A stretch of 64,000 nucleotides of DNA, taken from positions 1,240,001 through 1,304,000 of the forward strand of contig NZ_OZ034986.1 of NCBI RefSeq assembly GCF_964030895.1. Reading direction: 5' to 3'. The notes under the pieces were generated by a model. That model was not told the origin of the DNA and made no database searches. It saw only the letters and a list, made by a program, of their open reading frames with translations. The position numbers and the translations under genes are program-made. Positions 9,046-29,294 of the stretch are shown one piece after another. This stretch comes from Spiroplasma endosymbiont of Nebria brevicollis. Its GTDB lineage: Bacteria > Bacillota_I > Bacilli_A > Mycoplasmatales > VBWQ01. How positions within the stretch are numbered: position 1 is the first letter of the stretch; the number at the start of each line of letters is the position of its first letter.

Positions 9046-9447
9046 TAAACTAAATTAAAAGAATATGAAACTAAAATTAATAGTTATGAAGAGCAACAAT
9101 TATTTTCTAATATTAAAGATACTAAAAAAGTAAATTTAATTAAAAATTTAATGAGTACTGATAATTATAAATCTTTATCTAAACAAGAAGCATTTAATAA
9201 AATAAATGAAGATTATAAAGAATTTCTTATTGATAAAATATCAGAATCTTTTAAACAAGAAAATAAACCTAATACAAATGATTTTAATCCTAAAACTCTT
9301 TTAGATTTACATACAAATAGTATTAATCCAGAAGAATTAGAAAGAAAATTAAATGAAAAAGCAAAAACTACAGGTATTACTGACCCTAACGAATTAGAAA
9401 AACTTGTAAATTTAGCAAGAGGAAATGCACTTAAATCTATTAAATAG
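9046..9447 (+). pseudogene. Scaffold protein of element A, C-terminal part
   Basis: An open frame of 134 codons corresponding to the C-terminal three-quarters of the putative scaffold at 28,265-28,789. It is Lys/Glu-rich and helical in character. It lacks its start because of the deletion joining it to the transposase. The first internal Met is at 9151. It lies 12 bases before the capsid gene, as in element B. Confidence 0.75.
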
Positions 9448-9459
9448 AAAGAGGATAAA

Positions 9460-10779
9460 ATGGCAATTCCACAAATACCTAAAGCATTTATTATTGGTGG
9501 TAATACACCTACTGAAAATGCTGTTTTAAGTGTACTTGAAGCACAAGTTCGTGGTGAATTAACTGCTGAAATAAGTACTTTATTTATGAGAAATACTGTT
9601 ACTGCTGACCAAATAGCAAATATTAGTGGTGTCGCAATGGCAATATATAGAGCAACAGTTCGTGTATTATGAGGTTCAACATGAGATGAATTTACTGGTA
9701 CTAAAAGACAAAAAGGAACAGTTAAAACAACAACATTAATTATTGATAAAGAATTAACAATTGATTTTAATATTCCAGAATTTCATATTGAAAGATTTAT
9801 GACTTCACCAGCAAATGTAGCAACTCAAATTGTTTCAAATTGAACAAGTTCATTTATGAGAAATTTAAGAGAAAATTTTGAATTAATATTTTTACAAGGT
9901 ACCAAAGATTATGTAATTGCTAAATCATTAGTATTACCTTTAAATTTAAATAATATGACTAAAGAACAAGCATTAAATGCTTATTATATAATTGGAGAAA
10001 GAAATAATAAATTAATTAAAAAAGTAGATGATATTACGGTTGGTATTAATAAAGCAGATTTAACTGGTGCTTGTGGTATTGATAGTAGTTTTAATTTGGC
10101 AAAAGCATTTACATTATTAAATTATGGTCAAATTGCTGCAAATACTTTAGCAACTGGTAAAAGATATACAAATCAAATTATGGGTATGGAATTTTATGAA
10201 AGTTTTTATTTAGAACAAGATTTTATTCATGATACAGTTTCTGGTATGCATTTAGAAAAAGATTATAATTTATTAAATTTATTTGGTGTAGTTTATAACA
10301 GATATATGTGAGGTATGCCTATTTCATTTACAAAAGTAAGAAATAAATTAGATAATGCAACAGATAATATTCGTATTATTGGGAAAGCATTATATGCATT
10401 ACCAAGTGCAATTAGACCAGATTTAATGTATATTATTCAAGAAAAAATGCCAACAATTGATGAAATTAAAACAGCAAGAGCAAAAAATTATAAAACAGAC
10501 CCAACTAATGTTAATGCTACTTATCAATCAACAGATTATGATAATATGAATATTTTAGATTTACAAAATATAATTTATTATAAAGATTTAGGAAACATTA
10601 CTATTGCTAGTGATAATCCTACTAGTGATGAATTAGATATAGCAATAGTAAAAATAGGTAATGTTGGATTTGAACCTAAAAAAGCAACATATACTAATAT
10701 TACTAATACAAGTGCAACTATGACTGGTGATAATAAAGAATATTATGGAACAGTTAAATTAACATTTACTAAGGCTTAA
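9460..10779 (+). CDS. Putative major capsid protein (element A copy)
   Basis: A 439-residue protein with in-frame TGA (Trp) codons, for example after VRVL and before GMPISF. It is nearly identical to the element B copy at 26,933-28,252; I saw only Val/Ala near residue 150 and Asn/Lys near residue 385. The capsid role is inferred from its position between a scaffold-like gene and head genes in a unit with terminase and portal, not from a recognised fold. It is complete, has an AGAGGA ribosome site, and could be expressed if a promoter is supplied. Confidence 0.65.
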
Positions 10780-10782
10780 ATT

Positions 10783-11031
10783 ATGGAATTTATATATAAA
10801 TATTTTAATGATAAATCACATATTATTATAAATTCCCCAAAACCAGAAGATTTAAATAGCTCACAAGATATATTAGCAATATTACTTTATGAATTTCCAA
10901 CATTAAATCCAAATTATATAAGAGTAAGTAATGTACATGATAATTTTGCTGTATGTGTTGGAGATAATGTTAATTTAAAAGGTAAAGTATTAATTCAAAT
11001 TAAAAAATCTACTAAATTAAAGGACGTATAA
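10783..11031 (+). pseudogene. Head-completion-like gene of element A, cut by element B
   Basis: Identical to the element B gene at 26,639-26,929 through KKSTKL, then diverges at about 11,019 where the end of element B begins. It finishes with KDV and a stop inside the element B terminal sequence. Element B therefore lies within or next to this gene. Confidence 0.7.
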
Positions 11032-13134: not shown

Positions 13135-13305
13135 ATGTCACCAAAAAATATACCAAAAGAAGAATTACTAAATAAAGTATTAATAATTAGATTTAAAGAA
13201 TTTGAATTTCAAGAATTAAAACAGTTTTGTAAAGAAAGAGAAATAACTATTTCTGAATTTGTAAGGAATTTAATTAAAAATGCAATTAAACGAGCAAAAA
13301 AATAA
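13135..13305 (+). CDS. Ribbon-helix-helix-like protein (56 aa)
   Basis: The pattern VLIIRFKEFEFQELKQFCKE followed by EITISEFVRNLIKN fits a short DNA-binding ribbon-helix-helix (CopG/Arc-like) protein. The element A homologue (31,051-31,209) differs in its N-terminal half, where DNA specificity would lie, but ends with the same FVRNLIKNAI. The gene overlaps the start of the exonuclease by 26 bases. It may be the early-operon repressor. Confidence 0.6.
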   Translation: MSPKNIPKEELLNKVLIIRFKEFEFQELKQFCKEREITISEFVRNLIKNAIKRAKK

Positions 13306-13930
13306 TTTAATTTTTAAAAAAGATACACATCAATATTTTTTAAATAAAGAAGAAAAAATCTCAGTTTCTAAAATTATTCAATATTATTTATATGAAGATA
13401 AAAATCCTTATGAAAATATACCTTTTGATAGATTAGAAAATGCTAGATTAAGAGGAGAAACTGTTCATAAAGTAGCAGAATTATATTTTAAAAATATAAA
13501 TATTAATAATATAAAAGATAAATTATTAAATAATATTCAACATTTATTTAATAAAAATTATTTACAATATTGTGAAAATTTATTAAATAATTTACAAGAA
13601 TTTAAAGTAAATACTAAATATATATGTGAACAAGTATTTACTTATGATATTATTGCCGGAACACCAGATTTAATTTATAAAGAAAATAATTTATATACAA
13701 TAATTGATTTTAAAACATTATCAAATATGTATAAAGAAAATAAAGAAAAATCAATATTACAATTAACTGCTTATTATTGAATATTAAAAAATAATGGTTT
13801 TAATTTATCAAATACACATTATATTTATTGAATTCAAAAAGATAATGTAGAAAAAATATTAGTAGAAATAACAGATGAATTAGTATATGAATGAGAAATG
13901 GCAATTGCACTTTGAAAGGAAAATCACTAA
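13280..13930 (+). CDS. PD-(D/E)XK exonuclease, RecT partner
   Basis: A 216-residue nuclease of the Cas4/RecB-like PD-(D/E)XK fold, suggested by AGTPDLIYK (about residue 128) followed by TIIDFKTLSN. These supply the usual Asp and the Asp-x-Lys. QLTAYYW further on fits the conserved Gln-x-x-x-Tyr (motif QxxxY). It is followed directly by recT with a 1-base overlap, so the two probably form an exonuclease-annealase pair, like RecE/RecT. An element A copy is cut after DLIYK by the end of element B. Confidence 0.8.
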
Positions 13931-14727
13931 TGGCAAATTTAACTTTACCTAAAAATATAGATAAATCAAAAATACAACAATTTACTAACTATTATGAATT
14001 AACAAAATTAAATGATAAAAAATTATCAACATTAAATCCACAATCAGTTATTAATACTTTAGTAACTATATTTGAATTAGATTTAAGTAATAATCCAATT
14101 AAAAAAGAAATAGCATTAATACCTTATAATAATGAATTACAAGTACAAATACAAGAAGATGGTTTTTTAACTTTATTACAACGTTCAAATTGTGTAATTG
14201 ATTTTCAAAGAGAAATTATTACTGATAAACATATTTTTAATAAAGAAACTCAACGTTGAGAATTAGACCCTAGTAAAATATTTGAAAATAAAATAATTAT
14301 TGGTTATTATGGTATGATTTCTATTAAAAATTATTTAGGTAAAATAATTACTTTTATTAAAGGTATGACTAAACAAGAATGTGAAGAACATAGAAAAAAA
14401 TATAGTAAAGCAAATGGTAATAGTCCATGAACTACTAGTTTTAATGCTATGGCACTTAAAACAGTTATTAAAGCAATTATTAGAGATATTAATAAAGACC
14501 CTAGTATTAAATTAGAAAATCAAAATATTATTGATAGAGCAATGCAAATTGATCAAGCAATAGTATTAGAAAATGAAAATATAATGTATGTTGATAATCC
14601 AAATAATGATAATAAAGAAATTAAATTAAAATCTATTGAAGAACCAAAAGAAGAAATAAATATTAATTATGAACAAATACAAACTAATATTGATAATTTA
14701 GATAAGGTAGTATTTAGTAATGAATAA
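13930..14727 (+). CDS. recT: RecT-family single-strand annealing protein
   Basis: A 265-residue RecT-type annealase. LSNNPIKKEIALIPYNN near residue 55 and LQVQIQEDGFLTLLQRSN match the family's core, and the C-terminal third is a variable acidic tail. Two TGA codons are Trp. It lies between the exonuclease and the RuvC-like resolvase, making a complete phage recombination module. RecT proteins promote annealing during phage replication and explain the mosaicism seen between elements A and B. Confidence 0.88.
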
Positions 14728-15250
14728 TTATTTACTTTCAATAGATCCAAGTATGAAAAATACTGGGTTTACATTATGAGAAAATAAAATACCAATATTA
14801 ATAACTAGTCTTAATTTTTCTAAAAAAGATTATCATTATTTTACTGATTTTATTAATATAGTTTTTCTACAATGTCAAACTAATAATTTAGGTTTAATTG
14901 ATGATAAAACAGATTATAGTTTATATTTAGTAATTGAACGTGGGATATTTAATCCAAAATTTGGTAAAGGTAAAGAAACATTAGACCATTTACGTGGTTT
15001 TATTGCTGGACAATTTAATAAATTATTAACTAAAGATATGTTAGTTAGTAGTAGTGAATGAAGAAAATGATATCAAAGTTTAGATGAAATTAAATATAAT
15101 TGAAATTATAAACCTTGAACTAAAGAGTTATCAATTGAACTTTCTCAATTCATGATTAAGAACCATAATTGAAATATTAAAATTAAAGACCATGACCAAG
15201 CAGAAAGTTTATTAATTGGTTGATATTATTTAAATAAGGAAGTGAAATAA
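14720..15250 (+). CDS. RuvC-like Holliday-junction resolvase
   Basis: A 176-residue RNase H-fold nuclease. LSIDPSMKNTGF at residues 6-17 gives the first Asp and the RuvC-type glycine. YLVIERG (about residue 72) gives the central Glu, and KDHDQAESLLIG near the end gives the C-terminal acidic residues. It overlaps recT by 8 bases and probably resolves branched phage DNA before packaging. Several TGA codons are Trp. Confidence 0.8.
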
Positions 15251-15354
15251 TGGTTTGATGAGAAATATTAATAATTATAAATTCTACAATAATAGCATTA
15301 ATAAATTTAGGTTGTTTTATTGTTTTATTACTTGATTTAGTAAGGAAAAAATAA
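15250..15354 (+). CDS. Single-pass membrane peptide (34 aa)
   Basis: Starts on the last base of the resolvase stop codon. It is almost entirely one hydrophobic helix with a basic C-terminus (LVRKK). It is too short to assign, and could be a small holin-like or accessory protein. Confidence 0.45.
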
Positions 15355-15355
15355 A

Positions 15356-15532
15356 ATGAAAACTAAATTAAAATGTATTTGTAAAGATTGTAATAGTAAA
15401 GTATTAATTAAATTACAATCTACAGATTTAGAAAATACTTCTGTTCAATTTTTTAAAATGTGTAAAAAACATCAATTAGATTTTAATAATAAAGTAAAAG
15501 AAATTAAAGAATATTATAAAAATAAGGAGTAA
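15356..15532 (+). CDS. Small Cys-rich protein (58 aa)
   Basis: CICKDC near residue 7 and CKKH near residue 36 could bind zinc. It is the last clear gene of the early operon, and only a seven-codon reading frame follows. Weak dyad symmetry near 15,560 may end the transcript. Function unknown. Confidence 0.55.
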   Translation: MKTKLKCICKDCNSKVLIKLQSTDLENTSVQFFKMCKKHQLDFNNKVKEIKEYYKNKE

Positions 15533-15599: not shown

Positions 15600-16070
15600 T
15601 TATTTGATTTCAGGGACATCTTGTTCAAATCATTTCTTAATTAATTCATTATCAATAACAGATGAATTTGGAGTTTTTAATCATGGTTCTGTATCATGTG
15701 AAGCACTAACTAATCTCATTGTAGAAAATTGACTTAAATGATTTAATATTTTTTGAAATATTTTTTTATTATATTTAGGAGTTTCAAATTCTTGAAATCT
15801 ATAAATATCTATCCCATTAGAACCACAATCTTTTAAAAAATTATATAATGGTTTTACTACTGGTCCATATGTTCAAGCATAAAAATTAATATTTATTATT
15901 TCTTTTTTAAGTTCTTTTCAATAATAACAATAAAGAAATAATAAGATTTTTTGTAATCTTAAATTACTAATATTTTCTTGCATTTCTTTTGGTATATTCT
16001 TATTTTTTTGTTCTTTATCATAAAATTTTATGATTTCTTTACATAATCCTTTTACTTTATTAATTTCCAT
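15600..16070 (-). CDS. Panacea-domain (DUF4065/SocA-like) protein
   Basis: A 156-residue protein with the features of Panacea antitoxins: NLRLQKILLFLYCYYW, then FYAWTYGPVVKPLYNFLK (Trp-x-x-Gly-Pro-Val) and a C-terminal ELIKKWF. Panacea domains neutralise many unrelated toxins in toxin-antitoxin pairs, often in phages. It stands alone between the convergent early and late operons, with a terminator upstream at 16,172-16,199, like a moron gene. No obvious partner toxin adjoins it. I chose ATG 16,070; TTG 16,100 is an alternative. Confidence 0.75.
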
Positions 16071-16171
16071 TTTAATCACATCCGAACGATAACTTAGCAA
16101 AAACTATTATTTTATATTCACATATTAACATATTTAAAAAATGAATAATTGATAATACAAAAATATAATAA

Positions 16172-16199
16172 AAAAAGTTACTATTTCTAGTAACTTTTT
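16172..16199 (-). terminator. Late-operon terminator
   Basis: A stem of about 12 bp (AAAAAGTTACTA / TAGTAACTTTTT) with a 4-base loop and a T-run on the minus strand. It is placed after the holin-like gene and before the Panacea gene. Confidence 0.75.
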
Positions 16200-16362: not shown

Positions 16363-16590
16363 CTAAAATATATTAGTAAATGTTGCTAACGCAACTATTA
16401 TAATGCACATAAAAACTAATATAGAAAAACAAATACCAATAATTCCGCTTTTGTTTTTAATACTTTTTTTCTTTTCAATAGAGTTACATAATAATACTGC
16501 AGGTATTAAAAATACTATCATAAAAAAAGTTGCTATTACTGCTATTTTAACTAATATAATCTCATGAGTTGTTCCTAATAATCAATTCAT
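16363..16590 (-). CDS. Two-helix membrane protein, holin-like (75 aa)
   Basis: Two hydrophobic segments (residues about 11-33 and 48-70) separated by a basic loop (SIEKKKSIKNKSG). Size and topology resemble a class II holin, and it is the last gene of the late operon, where lysis genes usually lie. A strong AGGAGG site precedes ATG 16,590. No endolysin gene is present. The holin role is inferred from size, topology and position only. It could also be the target-membrane toxin partner of the Panacea protein. Confidence 0.5.
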
Positions 16591-16629: not shown

Positions 16630-19560
16630 TTATCTTGAATTTAGTATAATTTGTGAAATAGTTAAATTATAATATTTATAATATCTTATGTACTGTGTTA
16701 AACCTAAAACCGCTTTTTCACTGAATCAAGAAACTTCTAATTGCATAATATTTGGTAATAATTGTATTTTTCACTTAAATTCTTTGTCAGATAAATCACA
16801 AAATCCTAATATTGTGTCTTTTTGATTTTCAATACTTTGTGTAGTAATATTATCTTCAATTCTAGATTGCATATAAGTATTTTCAACACTATATACATTA
16901 TTTTCATTTCTATCAATTTCTATTCCTATTTTACCATTACCATAATATCCGGCATATAATCCATGATATGTAATATTATGGTCTTCATAATATTTTAATT
17001 TTAATGAACTATTATATGTTAATAATTCTTTTAAATCTCTTGAAAAAACGAAGGTTTGAGATTTAGAAGGTTTAAAAATTTCTTTTGTAGAACAACCTTC
17101 CGTTTGATGATTAATAAACTCATCTGTTTCATATTCATAACTTAAGTATACATCTATACTTTTATAATATCTTTTTAAATCATTAAAAGTATTAATTAAT
17201 AATGTAGGGTCTAAATAATCTTTAAAATTAATATCTATTTCTAAGGGTTTAATTTTTGGTGCTACATAATCATTTCAATTATAAGGTGAATATTGTAACT
17301 TATTATCATTACCTATACTAAATAAACTTTCTAATGGTAAATCCATTTTTATAGTTGGATTACTTGGAATAATAACTATTTGTTTTGCTATATTTTGTGG
17401 ACTTGGTGGTAAGATATTTGCTGGATAACTAAATGTAGTTTCTTCAGTTTCTTTATATTCATCATGATTTAATTTATATAAAGTAGTTCAATTAAAAGCA
17501 TTACTAGTTAATGCTCCTTTATTTTTATATCTAAATTGTGCTATTGAAAGTTCATTATAATCACCTTGATAAGTAAATGGATTATCACTATAAAATGTAT
17601 GTCTTTCTTCACCTTGATGTAATGATTGAGTTACAATTGTATCAATAATGTATGCATAATTAGAACTATCACCAACACCATTACTTGTTGGATTTCATTG
17701 CATTTCTGTGTCTAAGTTAGTTAATGGACTTGCTATATCTAAAAATTCAGTATCTTCTGCTAAAATATAAACTTTATTATTTTTCTTTTGTGATAAATCA
17801 ACTGTACTTATTTGTTCTTTTGTTTTTAATTTATGACCAGTTTTAGGGTCTCATGGATATACTGATATTCTATCAGTTAATTTCATAGTCATAGCAGTTG
17901 TAGAAACATTAGCACCTAATAATTTACCAATAGCAAAAGCATTTTCATTAGCAAAAGCATTTAATGGAATTAAACCACCATTACCAATAATATTTTCTAA
18001 ATTATTTGTAAAAAATGCTGACATAAAACCATTAAAATATAACATTTTTTTATATTGTTGATTATTTTGATTAATAATAAAACCAATTGGAATACCTAAA
18101 CTTAAAACATTTAATAATTTACCAATTAATGGTATATCACTTGAAGCAAAAGGTAATCATTGTACACTATCATAAGGCATTTGTATTAAACTACTAAATA
18201 CTACTGAATTAAAATTTAATATAGCACTCATATATTTTTGACTTATTTTTGAATAATCTACAGTTGGTGAACCAATAATTAAATTAGTATCTGGGTCTTT
18301 ATATTTAAAATTACTAGACATATCTACATTATAATTACCAGAGATATTATTAATATTTCATTCACTATCTCAAAAGAATTTAGCTTCTCCAATTGCTGTA
18401 CCATTACTATTAGTTGCTTTTGTTTTATCAAATGCTAACATACCTTTAAAATCTTTTGTAACAAATAAATTTGCTTGTAAATTTAAACTAGTTGATAATC
18501 ATTCTTTTCAATTTTTAAAATTAAGATATCCAGTAGGTTTTGCATCCATTAAATTATAAAATGTAGTTTCTGGATGACTATTAGTAGTTATTTTATCATT
18601 AATACCTGCTAATAAACCACCATTATTTTTAACTGATGTACTTGAATGGTCATTATTACCAGCAATAAATAATCTTCTTGAAGCAAATACTTTTTGTTCA
18701 AATATTTCATTATTATTAATTTGATTAGGTGCTTGACCTTGTATTATAGGTCTACCATAATAATAACAACTAGATAATAATTCTAAACCATAAGATTGTC
18801 TATGACTATATCTAACTCCAATATCACGCATTAAAGTACGATTTAACGTTACTAAACTATTTTGAATAGTAGGGAAAGCATAACCACTACCTGGACTTGC
18901 ATATTGTACATAATCAAGCGTATTTTGACCACTTGCTACTGCTCTATCATTAACTGAACTAAAAGTTAATACTTGCATACTAAATTCACCATTATAAGGA
19001 CTATAATAATTAGTTACATTTGAAATATATAATAATTGTCTATCTTGATTTTTACCAGTATTACCACCAATATTTTCATTTTTATCATTAAATACACAAA
19101 AAAATTGTAAATAATCATCTACTGTAATTTGTTCTTCAAACATAACTAATATATATTGTCTTGTTGTAGAAATTGTTTTAAATAATTGATTATTAGGTAA
19201 ACCACCAAAATCTACACCACTTGTATCATCAATTAAATAAGCATTTCAATAATCACCAATTTTATATTGTTTAGTATAATATTGGTCTTGTCCAGTAGTT
19301 TTATGAGTAGTTGGGTCTGTTATACCTTTATTTTTTTGATAGATTTTAGTACTATTTTTTCAAATACATACAACTGGAGTATTACCAGAAAGTATTAATT
19401 CATATTGACCAAAATCACTAATTTTACTATTAATAGGTTTATAACCAGTTTCAGTTAAAGGTATTGCTCCATTATTAATTATAAATGGAAATATTTTTCA
19501 ATGACTTAAACGTTTAATTATTGCTTGTTGTCTCTTTAGATTTAGATGTGCGTGTTTCAT
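16630..19560 (-). CDS. Large phage structural protein (976 aa)
   Basis: The largest protein of element B, with many TGA-Trp codons. It is rich in Asn, Tyr, Ser and Thr and probably mostly beta-structured, with a Gly/Ala-rich, moderately hydrophobic segment around residues 500-560 (FINGLLNVLSLG-like area) that could contact membranes. It starts inside the portal gene (47-base overlap) and is followed by the holin-like gene. The position after portal suggests a tail, tail-knob or adsorption protein. I do not recognise the family. Confidence 0.65.
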
Positions 19561-20869
19561 TAATTGAATTCGTTGATGATTGCTCATTTTCACTATCTCC
19601 TAATTCTTTATTTAATTTTTTATTTTCTGTAATAATATTTTCAAATTTATTTTCTGCCATAAGTTGGTCAATATTATCATATTCACCAATTGCTTCACTT
19701 ACTGTCATAGTACCATTATTTAATCTTGAATTAATAATTTGGTCTTGTACTATTTGGTCAGTCATTGCTATAGGTATAAATTTAAATGAATAAGGTCTTT
19801 CACCAATACCATTTCATAAATTTTCACTAATAAGAAGTAAATCAAATATACGATAAAAATAAGCACTATAAAATGCTATTTTAATTTCTGTTGTTTCCAT
19901 ATCAAATTTATTATTAAACATACTTTGTGTTTTATTAGTATAAACATCATTACCATGTTCATCATAATCATAACCAGAACCATTAAATATTGCTTTAGCA
20001 GTACCATTATAATCTAATCAATATTCACTAAATTTTGGGTCACCTTGTATAATTTGCATACTACCATTCCCATTTTTATCATATCCAGCACTACCAACAT
20101 TAACTATCATATCTTTTTTAGGATTTTCAATAATATTACCATTTTCTTGCATTTCTTTAACTGTTTCATTATCTAATACAGCAAATAAAGTAGTAACATT
20201 AAATTCTCTTTCTAATCTTTTTTTCTTAATAACTTGATTTAAATCTCATATTAAATCTCATACTGCTGTACAATCTGGATATGCATTTAAAGTAGTTGTA
20301 TTACCATATAAATTAATAATTGGTAAATTAGTTATTTCAAAAATAGGAATATAATTAAATGAATTTTTAATTTCATAAGTTTTTAATGGTGTTATATTTG
20401 GTTTTAATTTAGTTCTTGTAGAACCTAAAATAATATCTTTATTATTATCTTTATATGTTTCATATTTAACTTTTCCATTTTGTATTATTACTCAAGTTAA
20501 AGTAGCACTATCAGCTTGTTCATTAATAAAATAAAATTCTGCTGATTGTTCTTGTTCATTATATTTAGCAACTCTACCACAAAAACTATTAGGTAATATT
20601 TTAAGGGATTTACTATTATCTTCATTAATTATAATCATAATAAATACTTTACCCATTAGTGAATTTTGTAAACCAAATTTATAAAATTTTTCTAATCATT
20701 TATCTTTTAAATTCATTTCATTAAGATAATCTAATATTTCTTTTTTACTTGAATTAAATAAAAATCCTTTACCTAATCATAATTTAGTTGATTTTTGAGC
20801 AATAATCATTGGTATATCAATATATCAATCTTTTTTATCACAACTTAAATATTCCATTGTATTTATCAT
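19514..20869 (-). CDS. Phage portal protein
   Basis: A 451-residue protein immediately downstream of the large terminase (1-base gap). Its composition and order resemble SPP1 gp6-type portals: an early basic helix-rich part, a central region with FNGSGYDYDEHGNDV, and a C-terminal part with SRLNNGTMTVSEAIGEYD, a motif commonly seen near portal ends. The final 50 residues are a polar, Ser/Lys/Asn-rich tail. It forms the DNA entry ring of the capsid. The assignment rests on context plus the weak C-terminal signature. Confidence 0.75.
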
Positions 20870-20870
20870 A

Positions 20871-22340
20871 TTAATCACCACCAAAATTATTTTTATTAAT
20901 TAATAATTTATTATTAATACCATTAATTAATCATTTCATTTCATGCATTAATGCATACATATCACTATCTCAAGTATCATCATGTAAATCTAACATTTTC
21001 GGACTATTATTAGTATCTAATTTCTTTTTATCTAATCATTGCATTAAACTATATTGTCTTTTAGTTTCTGGACATCTTTCTCAATTAAAACTAATAATAT
21101 TTTTAAGCATACAAATTGTTGTAAAATCAATTCTATCATTTAAATATAAAATTGATTTATCTACTGCTATAAATTTTAATCATGTTATATTACGTTTTTT
21201 AACTCAACTTTTTAAAACATCAATAAATACTAACCCACCATTACCATAATCAACATAACAAGTAAAACCAAATAACATTGCTATATAACGTTTACTTTCA
21301 TTAATATAATAATTAATAATATCATTTGCTAAAGTATCAGTATCTTTATATTGCATAGTAACATTACTATGATAAAATTCACTTTCTTTATGTGCTCTTC
21401 TACCATTATCATTTTCACCAATAAATCATAATGAAGCAGATGTAGGATGACCACTTGGACTTGTTGCCATACCTATATCTAAACCACCAGTTAATCTTTG
21501 TACTTGAAAATCTAATTTAGTATTAACTTTATCTAAATATCTAGCAAAAATAGCACCTTGTAAAATACTTGGTACACCATAATATCAACTTTGTGCTTTA
21601 ATTGGATCTAATACTTTTAATTCTTCTAAATCATTAATCATATCTAATGTAAGATTATGAGCATTTACTTTTCAATTACTATAATGAAATAATTTAAAAA
21701 TATTATTATCAAATATTGATTTAATTTGTTCATTTTTTTCTTTCATTATTTCTAAATTAAAAGGTACAATTTTATTCATATATTCAATATAATATTGATA
21801 AATATTATCTGGATTACAACTTTTTATTTTTATTCTTTTTTTAGCATTACCTAATGCAAATGTTATTGCTTGAAATTCTTGTTGACTAAATTCATTTGCT
21901 TCTTCACATCATTCAATTGCTAAATCAAAACCTTTTATTTCACTACGAGAAAGACCTTTTAAAGGTATTCTATCATTTGAATTACTATATACACCCATTA
22001 CCCTAATAAATGATTTAAAACCTTTAAAACGAAAGTCTGCTTGCTTATTAGGGTATTTTAAAGTAAAGTCTTTATAATCATTCAATCCAATTATTATTAA
22101 AGCATTATATATTTCTTTTACTAAATCATTAATATCTTTATTTAATTTTCTAAATGCATAAATAGCAATTGATTTTTGTACTTTAATTGATATAACTATT
22201 AATATTGCTAATTCTTCTGCTATACTATATGTTTTACTAGAATATCTACTACCACTAAGATTATATTCACTATGAGTAAAATCACTTTTATTTAATAATC
22301 AATAACTAATTTCATTTAAATAAGTAAATTCTTTATTCAT
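20871..22340 (-). CDS. Terminase large subunit
   Basis: A 489-residue packaging motor. SGSRYSSKTYS near residue 29 fits the Walker A region of TerL proteins, FDLAIEWCEEANEFS near 140 gives the Walker B and catalytic Glu, and GGLDIGMATSPSG near 285 begins the RNase H-like nuclease domain. TGA-Trp codons occur throughout. It precedes the portal. Unusually, the small subunit is about 7 kb away at the start of the late region. Confidence 0.85.
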
Positions 22341-22344
22341 AATA

Positions 22345-24000
22345 TTATTCCTGTAATTCTTCTAGTAAATATAAACCAGATGAATTATATAAATCAATTA
22401 TAGTAACACAAACAATTTTTCTTTCTCGTGTACCAACTGGAATACTATTTAAATAAATTGCACCAGTAATTCCATAATTTCCTTTAACACTTCCAAAAAG
22501 ATGACATATTTTTGGAGTAAGTGGTACTTGGTCTGGTAATAATTGTGGTGTAAATATAATTTCTAATTTTGGAGCATAACTATAATAAGGTTCAAGATTA
22601 CTTACATTATTATAAGTTAATTTATATTTTTTATTAGGTTTTAATTCATATTCTATTTGTGTGTTATTTTTTATTAATTTTCCTACTTTTTTTCATTTTG
22701 GAATTCTCGGAGTAGGATTTGGATTATTTTTAAATTCAATATCTCAATAATTTTCTTCTATTTCATTAGTTTCTAAACTACTTGATTTAAGTTTTAAAGG
22801 TTTAGTTCTTTTATTTAATTCATTAATAGCACCAGTAATAGTTTTATCAGTAGTTTGTAAATTATCATCTTTAATATTTTGTTTTAAAACTATAATATTC
22901 ATATTATTAGTTACTTCAGTATGAAGTTGACTAATTTTTAATTCTACTGATTTTATATCATTATTATGATTTTCAATACTTTCTTTTTTATCTAATAAAT
23001 TATTAGTTTCTTCTTTTTTATAATAATCAGTTAAATCTGGCGGTTCACTACCACCAGTAGCACTAATAATATTATCTTTAATAGTTATATTAGTACCTGC
23101 AATTAATTTATCTTGTTTTAATAATAATTTATCATCTGCATATTTTTTTGGAATTAAAGTTCCATTTAAATAACTTGAGTAATCTTCTGTAAACGGATTA
23201 AAATTTTTATAAGCAACTCATTTATATATAAAATTAGGTACTAAAGTATGTTTTAAAATTTCAATAGCATTTTTTTTATCATCAAGGTCATCAAAATAAA
23301 TTACTTTATCACTAACATCACTATTAACTATATGAGTTTCTTTATCATATTTAATATTAATAGTTTTTTTTGGACTTTTAAATTCAGGTACTGTAGTACT
23401 TGTATTAATACCTCTAGTATCAATATTAACAACTGGTCTTAACATATTTTGTGTATTAGTAATAGTAATTTTAGTTCTAATATCTAATGATTTTATATTA
23501 GTATATGGTATATATGCATTTAATGGACTATCTTCTCCACAATTTGAAATAAATTTATTAAAATAATTATTTTTTTGTGGTTCTATTCCTTTTAAATTAA
23601 AACCTTTAATATTTGGATATTCTTTAATTTTTCTTAAATAATTAAATACTTCGGGTGGGATAAAATAAGGGTCATCTGGATTAGTTTCACTATAAGTTAA
23701 TCCACCTTGACTAATTGAACCTTGACCACGTAAATAATCTACATCTTTAGTTAATAAAAATCTAACATAATTAGTAGTTGCTGTTTGAACATTATTTGTA
23801 AAATCTGTTGGTGTTATTTCTGGTCATTTTTTACTAATAGTAAAACCACTTAAATAATCAATATTACTACTAGCTACAGATATTGCAAATCAAATTTCAT
23901 TATCTGGAGTAGTTACTTTATCAAAAAATAATTCATTAAAATATTTTGATAATTTAAATTCTTCAACTGTAATAAATAATATTGGGTCTTTAATTGCCAT
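22345..24000 (-). CDS. Phage fibre-like structural protein (551 aa)
   Basis: ATG 24,000 follows AAGGAG. The centre holds KLIAGTNITIKDNIISATG, a sequence style typical of repeats at the base of phage head or tail fibres, followed by a coiled-coil-like stretch (EETNNLLDKKESIENHNNDI) and a C-terminal beta-rich domain ending in a wall of Leu/Glu. This is consistent with a fibre or head-decoration spike that contacts the host. The host receptor is unknown. Confidence 0.6.
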
Positions 24001-24041
24001 AATTTACTCCTTAATGTAAAAATAAAGGGTATTTAAACCCT

Positions 24042-24383
24042 TTAAATTTTAATTTTAGTTACTTTTTTCTTATCTTTATTTGTTAATTCTTGACGTTTTG
24101 CTTTTTGAGCAATAATAAAATCTTCAAAATCTTTTTCATCAACATCAAAAGCATCTAATTTTTGTGCAATAGGAGTTTCTGTTAATTGTAATCTATCATT
24201 TAATTGTTTAATATTTAAAATAATATATTCAATTAATTTATTAATTTTAAGTTCTTTAGCAACTATATCTTGTTTATTTTTTTTAATTTTTTTTGAAATA
24301 ATAGATAATACAAAAGTAATAATAACACCACTAGTAACTGCTCCTCCTATAATTCCACTTAATAAATATACTGTTAAATTCAT
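24042..24383 (-). CDS. Membrane-anchored phage protein (113 aa)
   Basis: An N-terminal hydrophobic helix (residues 4-30) followed by a long charged, helical domain. It starts 6 bases after the stop of the preceding membrane gene. Such proteins in late operons can be virion membrane-penetration or assembly factors, but the role here is unknown. Confidence 0.6.
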   Translation of the reverse strand: MNLTVYLLSGIIGGAVTSGVIITFVLSIISKKIKKNKQDIVAKELKINKLIEYIILNIKQLNDRLQLTETPIAQKLDAFDVDEKDFEDFIIAQKAKRQELTNKDKKKVTKIKI

Positions 24384-24389
24384 TTTTTA

Positions 24390-24905
24390 TTACACCTTTT
24401 CTATTTGAATTTTATTTGAATGATTTTTACATAAAATACATTCTTTTTTATGTTTTTTAATTTGTTGATATTGATAAATTAAATAAGGACTTGTAATAAT
24501 AATTGGAATTATTATTAATCCAAATTTAAGTAATTTTCCATAATTACCTAATTTAGTTGCTAGATTTAATCCTATATGACTAAACATTGGAAATAAAGTT
24601 AAAACCAAATGGTCAGGTCAAGTAAAATTATATTGAGTTGTATAACTTCCAATTCCCATTTCTATTGGTATTTTAGGTAGTAATCATGGTGTTATTGTAA
24701 AAAATAATGTTATTAATATACCAATAATATGACTAGTTATTTTTAAAATATTAGATATTAATATTTTGATTTTATCTATATGAGTACTATTTTTATTAAA
24801 TCAAATTTTATTTAATTTTTTATATTCTTTATTATCTTTTGATATTGGATTAATAGTATTTCATATACCAATTGGTTTAATAGGTTTTGTTAAATCTATA
24901 TCCAT
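24390..24905 (-). CDS. Multi-pass phage membrane protein (171 aa)
   Basis: About three hydrophobic segments (residues near 50-75, 95-115 and 125-145), two TGA-Trp codons in the first third, and a basic, Cys-containing C-terminus (CILCKNH). Its presence in the late structural operon suggests a virion or assembly membrane protein. Family not recognised. Confidence 0.6.
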
Positions 24906-24913
24906 ATAATCAC

Positions 24914-25831
24914 CTACTTTCATGTTTTATATTTACTTTTATTTTTATAAATAGAAATACCTATATTTTTAGTAGTACTACTTGTTTTATGAAAATTTAA
25001 ATATTCTTTTCTTTCTACTCTTCATGCTCTACTACCTAATTCAGTTTTTGGTAAAGTTTTAAATTCTTTAAGTTTAAAAAATCCACGTTCTAATCTATTA
25101 ATAAATGCAGTTGTTTTTAATACATTAATATTAGTTGATTTAAGCACATTATAGCGTTGTTTACCTTTACTAATACCTTTCTCTTCTTTAAGTTGTTTCT
25201 TAACATATTTACGTATTTGTGAAGGTAAAAAACCCCTTAAAAAATATCTTCAAAATATTGTTCCAGCACCACTACCATTTTTACCTTTTTGAACTTTCAT
25301 TAATTCTCAAGTCTCTTCATTTACATTAGGATAAGTATATGGACCATATCAACGTTTATTTTTATATGTATCAGATTGTATTAAAACTTGTAATAATCCT
25401 AATTTAAGTGATTTATTAGATTTATAAAATAAACCTTTTTTTAATCATGAACTAGATAATATTACTCAACCTTTATCATCTTTATTATCAGTTTCTTTTA
25501 CATCTTTATTATTTAAATCTTTAGTATCTTTAGTTTTATTATCTTTAAATAAATTATTAACTTTTTTAATTGGATTAACAAATAATTTATCTAATTCAGT
25601 TTTTAAAATAGTTAATTCATTAGGTTTTAAAATAGATAATAATTTTTTAGCAATATTAGGATTAAAAACTGAATAAGGTTGATTTAATTCTTCAATAGAA
25701 ACATTTTCACTATCTAACACTGATTTTAATCCATTATCTTTACTATAATTTTTTAATAAACTAACAATTAATACTCGAATATCATCACTAGCTAATGCAG
25801 AATATATTAATCTAATAATTAAAGGTAACAT
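24914..25831 (-). CDS. Late phage protein (305 aa)
   Basis: An N-terminal hydrophobic part (residues 1-20), then a Lys/Asp-rich low-complexity linker (around residues 95-120), and a basic C-terminal half with KNKRWYGPYTYP. The Tyr/Trp/Arg-rich C-terminus could bind DNA or the capsid interior. The start ATG overlaps the previous stop as TAATG, indicating coupled translation. No family was recognised. Confidence 0.6.
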
Positions 25832-26673
25832 TATAAAGTAAATAAACTATTACTACGTTGAATATTAGGGTCATAATCATTAATAGTATCTCTTGTTTCA
25901 TAGTTATCTCAATCAAAATTATTATCATCTGATATTATTGGTTGAGTTTCATTATCAATAAATGAAGTTTCTTGCATTTCTCTATCATGATTTGTTTTCA
26001 TTGGTAATAAATTATGTATAATTTCACTAGCACCCGCTATTATTGTAGGAATAGCATAAGCATTATTAAAATCATTATTAATACCCATTGCTACACCACT
26101 ACTAATTAAACACCCACCAGTACCCATATTTGCTATTTTTCTTATTGGTTCAAATCTATTAGGTATTAATTCAGTAATTCCACTAATAAGATTTGAAATA
26201 CCATAAGCATTTAATGAAATATAAGTATCTCAATCCATTAAATTATTAGAATTATTATTAAATAAATTATCTGGAAATGGATTAACAGTTGTTGATGTTG
26301 TACTTGTAGTAGTTATAGGAGATATAGTACTTGTTATTGGATTAATTGTTGTACTAGGTTCTATTGGTGTAATAACAGTATTTAAAAACTTACTATAATT
26401 TGCTAAACTAATTGTTCCTAAACCTAATAATATTTTTTTACTACTATTAATAAATTTAGTTTTAGAAGAAGGTCTTTGATTTAAATTTCATATATCTAAA
26501 CCTAATTTTTTACCAAATAATAAAGAATTAATTGAGCCTAATATTGGATTACCTATTAATTGTCCATAATAAGCACTGGTTCCAATCATTGCTAAAATTG
26601 GACTTATACCTGTTCTTATTAATTTTATTAAAGTATAGTTACTCAATGGTATAGTTTCAGCATGTTGTGGCAT
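25831..26673 (-). CDS. Late phage protein with Ser/Thr-rich linker (280 aa)
   Basis: Hydrophobic, glycine-containing segments at residues about 15-50 and 180-210 flank a Thr/Ser/Pro-rich linker (around residues 90-130). ATG 26,673 follows AAAAGGAG. It overlaps the preceding gene by 35 bases once that gene's TGA is read as Trp. Probably a minor capsid or membrane-associated virion protein; not recognised. Confidence 0.6.
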
Positions 26674-26929
26674 GTTTATTTTCTCCTTTTAATAATTTAG
26701 TAGATTTTTTAATTTGAATTAATACTTTACCTTTTAAATTAACATTATCTCCAACACATACAGCAAAATTATCATGTACATTACTTACTCTTATATAATT
26801 TGGATTTAATGTTGGAAATTCATAAAGTAATATTGCTAATATATCTTGCGAACTATTTAAATCTTCTGGTTTTGGGGAATTTATAATAATATGTGATTTA
26901 TCATTAAAATATTTATATATAAATTCCAT
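26639..26929 (-). CDS. Small late protein after capsid (96 aa)
   Basis: Directly follows the capsid gene (3-base gap). Read in code 4 it passes a TGA after HATTC and ends at 26,639. Size and position fit a head-completion or decoration protein. An identical N-terminal part is found in element A, where it is cut at 11,019. Confidence 0.65.
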
Positions 26930-26932
26930 AAT

Positions 26933-28252
26933 TTAAGCCTTAGTAAATGTTAATTTAACTGTTCCATAATATTCTTTATTATCACCAGTCATAGTTGCAC
27001 TTGTATTAGTAATATTAGTATATGTTGCTTTTTTAGGTTCAAATCCAACATTACCTATTTTTACTATTGCTATATCTAATTCATCACTAGTAGGATTATC
27101 ACTAGCAATAGTAATTTTTCCTAAATCTTTATAATAAATTATATTTTGTAAATCTAAAATATTCATATTATCATAATCTGTTGATTGATAAGTAGCATTA
27201 ACATTAGTTGGGTCTGTTTTATAATTTTTTGCTCTTGCTGTTTTAATTTCATCAATTGTTGGCATTTTTTCTTGAATAATATACATTAAATCTGGTCTAA
27301 TTGCACTTGGTAATGCATATAATGCTTTCCCAATAATACGAATATTATCTGTTGCATTATCTAATTTATTTCTTACTTTTGTAAATGAAATAGGCATACC
27401 TCACATATATCTGTTATAAACTACACCAAATAAATTTAATAAATTATAATCTTTTTCTAAATGCATACCAGAAACTGTATCATGAATAAAATCTTGTTCT
27501 AAATAAAAACTTTCATAAAATTCCATACCCATAATTTGATTTGTATATCTTTTACCAGTTGCTAAAGTATTTGCAGCAATTTGACCATAATTTAATAATG
27601 TAAATGCTTTTGCCAAATTAAAACTACTATCAATACCACAAGCACCAGTTAAATCTGCTTTATTAATACCAACCGTAATATCATCTACTTTTTTAATTAA
27701 TTTATTATTTCTTTCTCCAATTATATAATAAGCATTTAATGCTTGTTCTTTAGTCATATTATTTAAATTTAAAGGTAATACTAATGATTTAGCAATTGCA
27801 TAATCTTTGGTACCTTGTAAAAATATTAATTCAAAATTTTCTCTTAAATTTCTCATAAATGAACTTGTTCAATTTGAAACAATTTGAGTTGCTACATTTG
27901 CTGGTGAAGTCATAAATCTTTCAATATCAAATTCTGGAATATTAAAATCAATTGTTAATTCTTTATCAATAATTAATGTTGTTGTTTTAACTGTTCCTTT
28001 TTGTCTTTTAGTACCAGTAAATTCATCTCATGTTGAACCTCATAATACACGAACTGTTGCTCTATATATTGCCATTGCGACACCACTAATATTTGCTATT
28101 TGGTCAGCAGTAACAGTATTTCTCATAAATAAAGTACTTATTTCAGCAGTTAATTCACCACGAACTTGTGCTTCAAGTACACTTAAAACAGCATTTTCAG
28201 TAGGTGTATTACCACCAATAATAAATGCTTTAGGTATTTGTGGAATTGCCAT
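26933..28252 (-). CDS. Putative major capsid protein (element B)
   Basis: A 439-residue protein, preceded by a scaffold-like gene and an AGAGGA site. Several TGA-Trp codons lie inside. Gene order (scaffold, capsid, small head gene) and its near-identity in both elements support a main virion protein. I cannot confirm an HK97-type fold by eye. Confidence 0.7.
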
Positions 28253-28264
28253 TTTATCCTCTTT

Positions 28265-28789
28265 CTATTTAATAGATTTAAGTGCATTTCCTCTTGCTAA
28301 ATTTACAAGTTTTTCTAATTCGTTAGGGTCAGTAATACCTGTAGTTTTTGCTTTTTCATTTAATTTTCTTTCTAATTCTTCTGGATTAATACTATTTGTA
28401 TGTAAATCTAAAAGAGTTTTAGGATTAAAATCATTTGTATTAGGTTTATTTTCTTGTTTAAAAGATTCTGATATTTTATCAATAAGAAATTCTTTATAAT
28501 CTTCATTTATTTTATTAAATGCTTCTTGTTTAGATAAAGATTTATAATTATCAGTACTCATTAAATTTTTAATTAAATTTACTTTTTTAGTATCTTTAAT
28601 ATTAGAAAATAATTGTTGCTCTTCATAACTATTAATTTTAGTTTCATATTCTTTTAATTTAGTTTGTTGTTCTTGTAGTTTTGGATTTAAGATTTTATTT
28701 TCCATAAATTCTTCATGTTCTTTAACTAATCTTTGTAAATTTTCTGGTTTAGAATAATCTACTTTATCATCTCATTTAAAATTTTCCAT
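28265..28789 (-). CDS. Putative capsid scaffold protein (174 aa)
   Basis: Strongly helical and charged, with a coiled-coil-like middle (QEQQTKLKEYETKINSYEEQ) and a Lys-rich C-terminus, immediately before the capsid gene. This matches phage scaffolding proteins, which guide head assembly and are later lost. AGGAG lies 7 bases before ATG 28,789. A promoter-like TATAAT is at 28,854-28,859. Confidence 0.7.
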
Positions 28790-28853
28790 TTTAAACTCCT
28801 TATTAATAATAATTCCTATTATTAGGCAAATAGTCACGCCATGTTTCATAATA

Positions 28854-28882
28854 ATTATATCATTTTTACCCTTTAAAATAAA
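28854..28882 (-). promoter_or_regulatory. Probable promoter of the head-gene operon
   Basis: TATAAT on the minus strand at 28,854-28,859 with only a weak -35 (TTTATT-like) 17 bases upstream. It follows the terS terminator and leads a 65-base leader to the scaffold gene. Confidence 0.45.
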
Positions 28883-28885
28883 GAA

Positions 28886-28910
28886 AAAATCTATATTAAA
28901 TATAGATTTT
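28886..28910 (-). terminator. Terminator after terS
   Basis: Stem AAAATCTATA / TATAGATTTT with a 5-base loop, directly after the terS stop codon, followed by a T-rich run on the minus strand. Confidence 0.65.
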
Positions 28911-29294
28911 CTAATTATTATTTTCAATTTTTCTTGGTTCAGTAATATTAATAATTATATTACTATTATTTGTTTCTACATCTTGATTATCTATTAAATC
29001 ATCAAACATATCTCTATGATTTGTTCTTAAATATAATCATTCATATTGTGCAACTTTAGTTACATTTTTTAATCGTGCAATGCCTATTTTAAGGCATGCT
29101 TTATCATATTCGTTAATAAAATCTTTTTGTCATTTTGTCGGTCTTCTTCGGCAATCAAATATGTATTTATTATCAACCTTTAAAATATAATTTAATTCTT
29201 GTTTAGTACATTTTTTAAGATTATCTTTATTTGTTCTTAAATATTCTTGTATTTTTTCTTTATAATTACCTAATTCTTTTCTTTGTTTTGGCAT
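28911..29294 (-). CDS. Putative terminase small subunit (127 aa)
   Basis: A small basic protein with KCTKQELNYILKVDNKYIF and a QYEWLYLRTNHRDMF motif resembling the helical DNA-binding and oligomerisation parts of small terminases. It is the first late gene, next to the transposase, read away from it. AAGGTGA precedes ATG 29,294. It is deleted from element A. It is separated from the large subunit gene by head genes, so the call is based on features plus the presence of TerL. Confidence 0.55.

What the first reader, a model, noticed from the sequence alone, without database searches (positions are those of the whole stretch)
15600..16070. Phage-encoded Panacea-domain protein without an obvious toxin
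Panacea proteins are antitoxins that pair with many toxins. This one sits alone between convergent operons and behind a terminator, as a moron would. It may neutralise a host toxin defence, or the membrane protein at 16,363 may be the partner.
Basis: partly seen in the sequence, partly recalled or inferred. Interest (0 to 1): 0.65.

Follow-up and report, generated by a model that had tools for sequence, protein, structure and literature searches.

The report
Orphan phage antitoxin missing its toxin
A virus integrated in a spiroplasma genome carries a well-preserved antitoxin gene whose partner toxin gene was cleanly lost, probably because the antitoxin alone protects the virus or its host from related toxins carried by other mobile elements.

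Summary
Window 15600-16070 (-), read with genetic code 4, encodes a 156-aa Panacea protein (PF13274, 47.5 bits, E=4e-12). AlphaFold gives a confident model (pLDDT 93.6). It stands alone behind a 12-bp stem-loop, between the ends of convergent early and late operons of a ~20-kb dsDNA prophage related to Spiroplasma phage MaM-2019a. The genome holds about 11 copies of this prophage; only three carry the gene, identically.

It is the antitoxin half of a Panacea toxin-antitoxin pair that lost its toxin. The closest relatives are a 76%-identical copy elsewhere in the genome, followed by a truncated toxin ORF, and a 62%-identical copy on Spiroplasma citri phage-plasmids. On one of those the pair is intact, with the toxin start overlapping the antitoxin end by 20 nt. 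The window keeps that overlapping ATG, but the toxin is gone. The toxin family matches the downstream partners of Panacea genes in phages generally (hhalign 95%, 2e-8).

The membrane protein at 16363 is not the partner: one identical Panacea copy lacks it, and related phages carry it without Panacea. It fills a variable holin-like slot.

Retention as anti-toxin immunity is the likeliest function (inferred). A relic not yet decayed is the main rival.

The parts
15600..16070 (-). Panacea (PanA-type antitoxin) gene, 156 aa, genetic code 4
   Evidence: PF13274 47.5 bits; phrog_1281 6e-26; AlphaFold pLDDT 93.6, pTM 0.90
16075..16083 (-). ribosome-binding site GGATGTGAT, 8 of 9 match to GGAGGTGAT
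   Evidence: sequence; the leader is conserved in L007 and L008
16100..16171 (-). leader/promoter region of Panacea, moved together with the upstream stem-loop; the same block precedes the distant Panacea of locus L008
   Evidence: alignment of upstream regions; -10/-35-like 16138-16109 is no better than chance
16172..16199 (-). 12-bp stem, GAAA loop, then T run: terminator-like element closing the late operon
   Evidence: RNA fold -11.3 kcal/mol, z=-3.9; the A+T-rich stem is below the scanner's G+C rule
15617..15619 (-). vestigial toxin start codon inside the last codons of Panacea (20-nt overlap, as in the intact S. citri pair); the frame then runs 47 codons to 15476 without demonstrable similarity to the toxin
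16363..16590 (-). 75-aa protein with two hydrophobic segments, last gene of the late operon; holin-like slot; not the Panacea partner
16630..19593 (-). 987-aa late (tail-type) protein
   Evidence: function by position only
19514..28927 (-). portal-position gene, terminase, further late genes, capsid, scaffold of the same prophage
13280..15532 (+). end of early operon: RecB-type nuclease, RecT-type protein, RuvC-type resolvase, 58-aa protein

Best explanation
The gene is an orphan PanA antitoxin. Its ancestor was the first gene of a two-gene Panacea toxin-antitoxin module carried as a moron by several unrelated Spiroplasma phages. In this prophage lineage the downstream toxin was removed right after the antitoxin stop, while the antitoxin, its leader and a terminator-like element stayed intact as a stand-alone unit between the early and late operons (shown by comparison). 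The protein most likely folds as a complete Panacea domain and binds and neutralises toxins of its former cognate family when other mobile elements carry them, so that the phage or its lysogen is immune to a rival's addiction or exclusion module (inferred).
For: Family and intact predicted fold. Closest homologues pair with a downstream toxin: L007 at 76% identity with a truncated toxin ORF, and S. citri phage-plasmid CP047438 at 62% with an intact 130-aa partner, both overlapping by 20 nt. The window keeps the overlapping ATG but not the toxin, in all three copies with the same downstream sequence. No toxin of the family occurs in any prophage copy; one intact member remains in the genome, at 490300. 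Spiroplasma toxins and phage Panacea partners are one superfamily (hhalign 95.3%, E=2e-8). Of 53 scorable viral Panacea genes, 50 have an abutting downstream gene, so a solitary one is unusual. dN/dS to L007 is about 0.47 and the neutral chance of the frame staying open over that branch is about 0.002. Phages are known to carry orphan antitoxin-like genes against TA defence (DarTG1 case, PMC11825919, seen as a citation; V. cholerae phage DarTG antitoxin mimic, PMC11481870).
Against: The three copies are identical, so selection after loss of the toxin cannot be measured. PanA proteins are naturally specific for cognate toxins (PMC8832971), and no intact close cognate toxin remains in this genome: the intact one at 490300 belongs to a different PanA type (window versus L028/L031 antitoxins 25-26% identical). 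About half of DUF4065 proteins lie outside recognisable two-gene loci (PMC8832971), so other roles may exist. Nothing here shows toxicity or neutralisation.
Confidence: 0.58

Rival explanations
1. A recent relic: the toxin was lost, the antitoxin has no remaining function and has simply not had time to decay.
For: Post-loss divergence is zero among the three copies. Related loci show frequent decay of one half of the pair: truncated toxins in L007, L112 and L113; frameshifted antitoxins in L008, L114 and L116. Only 3 of about 11 prophages carry the gene.
Against: Frame, RBS, leader and predicted fold are all intact. Loss of only the toxin, right after the antitoxin stop, is what selection for immunity would leave. 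Some homopolymer frameshifts in the plasmid records may be sequencing errors.
Confidence: 0.27
2. Panacea and the 75-aa membrane protein at 16363 form a two-gene module with a membrane-acting toxin.
For: Small membrane PanT toxins exist (PMC8832971). The two genes are neighbours on one strand in two of the three copies.
Against: The third identical Panacea copy has no such gene. Related phages carry the gene without Panacea. Other prophage copies have different small hydrophobic proteins in the same slot. A stem-loop separates the two, and Panacea has its own leader.
Confidence: 0.04
3. The solitary Panacea acts as a sensor or regulator of the phage cycle rather than as an antitoxin.
For: The authors of PMC10440598 propose a sensory role for Panacea in multidomain antitoxins. 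The gene sits between the early and late modules.
Against: It is a stand-alone Panacea domain with no extra domain; stand-alone Panacea neutralises directly in tested cases (PMC10440598). Most prophage copies do without the gene.
Confidence: 0.07
4. The orphan substitutes for the broken antitoxin of the intact toxin at genome 490300, making the host dependent on the prophage.
For: At 490300 the toxin ORF is intact while its own antitoxin carries a frameshift and a stop; leader and stem-loop are shared with the window gene.
Against: The antitoxin types are distant and PanA is toxin-specific (PMC8832971). The frameshift could be an assembly error and the toxin could be inactive or untranslated.
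Confidence: 0.1

Closest known systems
PanA antitoxins of PanAT type II toxin-antitoxin systems (Pfam SocA_Panacea PF13274; PMC8832971)
   Same: Domain, motifs including GPV, stand-alone architecture; homologues in overlapping two-gene loci
   Different: No toxin next to it; the toxin was lost
Spiroplasma citri phage-plasmid pair QIA71781/QIA71782 (CP047438)
   Same: 62% identical antitoxin with the same C-terminal end and the same 20-nt overlap with the toxin start
   Different: Intact pair, in a different (HK97-like) phage, between portal and terminase
SocA antitoxin (NCBIfam NF047745)
   Same: Significant similarity, 62 bits
   Different: Far below the 190-bit equivalog cut-off; no SocB
Phage-borne orphan antitoxins and antitoxin mimics against TA defence (anti-DarTG proteins, PMC11825919 and PMC11481870; T4 Dmd)
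   Same: Antitoxin or mimic without its toxin in a phage
   Different: Those are tested against host defence systems; this one is Panacea-type and untested
phrog_8366 and the MAG6450 family (NF046006)
   Same: Families of Panacea partners: phrog_8366 members follow phage Panacea genes and are homologous to the Spiroplasma toxins
   Different: The Spiroplasma toxins are divergent, not matched by Pfam or PHROGs on their own, and only weakly linked to the MAG6450 group

Membership tests
Panacea / PF13274 | Score above curated cut-off | tested here: met
   47.5 versus 25.7 bits
Panacea / PF13274 | GPV motif and other invariant residues | tested here: met
   Aligned with 12 other Mycoplasmatota Panacea proteins and with 20 viral ones
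Panacea / PF13274 | Compact helical Panacea fold | tested here: inconclusive
   Confident, mainly helical model (pLDDT 93.6), but no significant match to a solved structure (best E 0.5) and no direct comparison with published Panacea models
PanAT toxin-antitoxin system | Two adjacent genes within 100 nt, conserved | tested here: not met
   No toxin in the window or beside the other two copies; met in relatives
PanAT toxin-antitoxin system | Antitoxin neutralises and binds the toxin | not testable with these tools
   Needs co-expression and pull-down
SocA (NF047745 equivalog) | Score above 190 bits | tested here: not met
   62.3 bits
Phage-borne orphan antitoxin (counter-TA) | Antitoxin carried by a phage without its toxin | tested here: met
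Phage-borne orphan antitoxin (counter-TA) | Protects the phage against a toxin system | not testable with these tools
   Needs infection or co-expression tests
Holin (for the 16363 protein) | Small protein with two or more hydrophobic segments in the late operon | tested here: inconclusive
   Two segments, last slot after the tail-type gene, variable among copies; no family match

The most novel reading that the evidence does not exclude
A phage that shed the toxin and kept only the Panacea antitoxin uses it as immunity against Panacea toxin-antitoxin modules of rival phages, phage-plasmids and plectrovirus-like elements in spiroplasmas: an arms race of orphan Panacea antitoxins between mobile elements.
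Probability: 0.4. Interest if true: 0.62.

Novelty: new member of a known kind. Interest (0 to 1): 0.42.

Why it matters
It gives a traceable case of how a phage antitoxin becomes an orphan: intact pair, truncated toxin and deleted toxin are all visible in related spiroplasma elements. It also names a testable cognate toxin family for Panacea, homologous to an uncharacterised phage family (phrog_8366), so counter-toxin immunity by a stand-alone Panacea protein can be tested directly.

Tried and rejected
Single-protein scans of genome contigs and viral contigs found no close relatives. Sequence search for solved structures gave nothing real. AlphaFold of the toxin family was poor (pLDDT 58.6) and its fold search meaningless; the fold search of the Panacea model gave no significant solved structure. 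A toxin remnant downstream of the window gene could not be shown above chance (shuffles reached the score in 7% and 59%). The 58-aa early protein was rejected as partner because it occurs identically in copies without Panacea. MAG6450 as the name of the lost toxin was rejected: no NF046006 match in this genome and a weak profile link. Promoter scan was at chance level. PADLOC gave no defence family for either protein.

Full report
WHAT IS THERE. The window lies in a 1.49-Mb genome that reads TGA as tryptophan. Named relatives are Spiroplasma. The frame 15600-16070 (-) needs four TGA=W codons and gives 156 aa. It is a clear Panacea protein (PF13274 47.5 bits; phrog_1281), with all residues invariant in an alignment of 13 relatives. 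AlphaFold with 20 viral Panacea sequences gives pLDDT 93.6, pTM 0.90.

SURROUNDINGS. The gene sits in a ~20-kb dsDNA prophage: plus-strand early genes (RecB-, RecT- and RuvC-type), minus-strand late genes (terminase, portal position, capsid). The nearest named phage is Spiroplasma phage MaM-2019a from S. poulsonii (69-70% DNA identity over parts; no Panacea annotated). The genome has about 11 copies of the terminase region. Identical Panacea genes occur in three of them. Between the late operon and Panacea lies a perfect 12-bp stem-loop with T run, then a leader with a good ribosome-binding site (sequence).

THE LOST TOXIN. In relatives, Panacea is the first gene of an overlapping or abutting pair. 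Spiroplasma sp. JKS002669 and a second Spiroplasma genome have Panacea followed by a 128-aa protein. Locus 490882 of this genome (L008) has Panacea with a frameshift and a stop, followed by an intact 123-aa homologue of that protein. Locus 526980 (L007), 76% identical to the window protein, is followed by a 73-aa truncated toxin ORF that starts inside the last codons of Panacea. S. citri phage-plasmids carry a 62%-identical Panacea between portal and terminase; on CP047438 the 130-aa partner is intact and overlaps by 20 nt. In the window the same ATG sits in the same place (15619-15617), but the frame runs on into unrelated sequence; no remnant beyond it can be shown. Searches with both toxin types and their profile find only the 490300 ORF and the L007 fragment in this genome. 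The toxin family, represented by five Spiroplasma and related sequences, aligns with the downstream partners of phage Panacea genes (hhalign 95.3%, E=2e-8 over 98 columns); the latter match phrog_8366. In viral contigs 50 of 53 scorable Panacea genes have an abutting downstream gene, though in dense phage genomes this is not proof of pairing.

THE MEMBRANE PROTEIN. The 75-aa protein at 16363-16590 has two hydrophobic segments and follows the 987-aa tail-type gene. It is missing beside the third identical Panacea copy. Homologues sit in the same slot in phages of two other genomes of the genus that have no Panacea at all. Other copies have different small hydrophobic proteins there. A holin-like function is plausible; partnership with Panacea is not.

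CASSETTE. The leader and stem-loop upstream of the window gene are also found upstream of the Panacea of L008, although the two proteins are distant. The loop is GAAA in one and TTTC in the other. The block thus moves with different Panacea genes between a tailed-phage-like element and a plectrovirus-like neighbourhood. Plectrovirus identity is my reading of the gene set, not a database match.

SELECTION. Window versus L007: dN/dS about 0.47. Under neutrality the frame would stay open over the window branch with probability about 0.002. This shows constraint over the branch as a whole, not specifically after toxin loss, because the three copies are identical.

HOW IT PROBABLY WORKS. Shown: antitoxin family, intact gene, loss of the toxin, no link to the membrane protein. 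Inferred: the protein still binds toxins of its former family and gives immunity against modules on other elements. Published PanA proteins neutralise directly when they consist of Panacea alone, and are toxin-specific (PMC10440598, PMC8832971). Orphan phage antitoxins against toxin-antitoxin defence are known (PMC11825919 as cited; PMC11481870). The main rival is an idle relic.

Noticed in passing
L008:9297-10205 (genome 490297-491205): Intact 123-aa toxin ORF behind a Panacea gene with a frameshift in an A-run and an internal TAA; either a sequencing error plus decay, or a toxin that needs an antitoxin from elsewhere.
   Followed up: partly
window 16172-16199 and L008:10263-10290: The same 12-bp stem in two elements with inverted loop (GAAA versus TTTC), as if the loop had flipped.
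   Followed up: partly
window 25831-26673: Late gene of the dsDNA prophage is homologous to a gene in the plectrovirus-like region of L008 (13861-14736): gene sharing between a tailed-phage-like element and a filamentous phage.
   Followed up: partly
L025, L026, L027 (Spiroplasma sp. JKS002669): Tandem arrays of Panacea plus ~160-200-aa partner genes (two or three repeats per locus), partner without Pfam match.
   Followed up: no
L055:1429-2614: Panacea overlapping an upstream 231-aa protein with a near-threshold CAP12/Pycsar TIR match (PF10137, E=3e-5): a possible Panacea-TIR pair.
   Followed up: no
L011:9241-10122: 293-aa chromosomal protein with an N-terminal Panacea-like region and a long C-terminal extension, between housekeeping genes.
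   Followed up: no
window 9151-11031 and 26639-28927: Capsid and neighbouring genes occur twice in inverted orientation, with transposase genes near each end, suggesting rearranged adjacent prophage copies.
   Followed up: no
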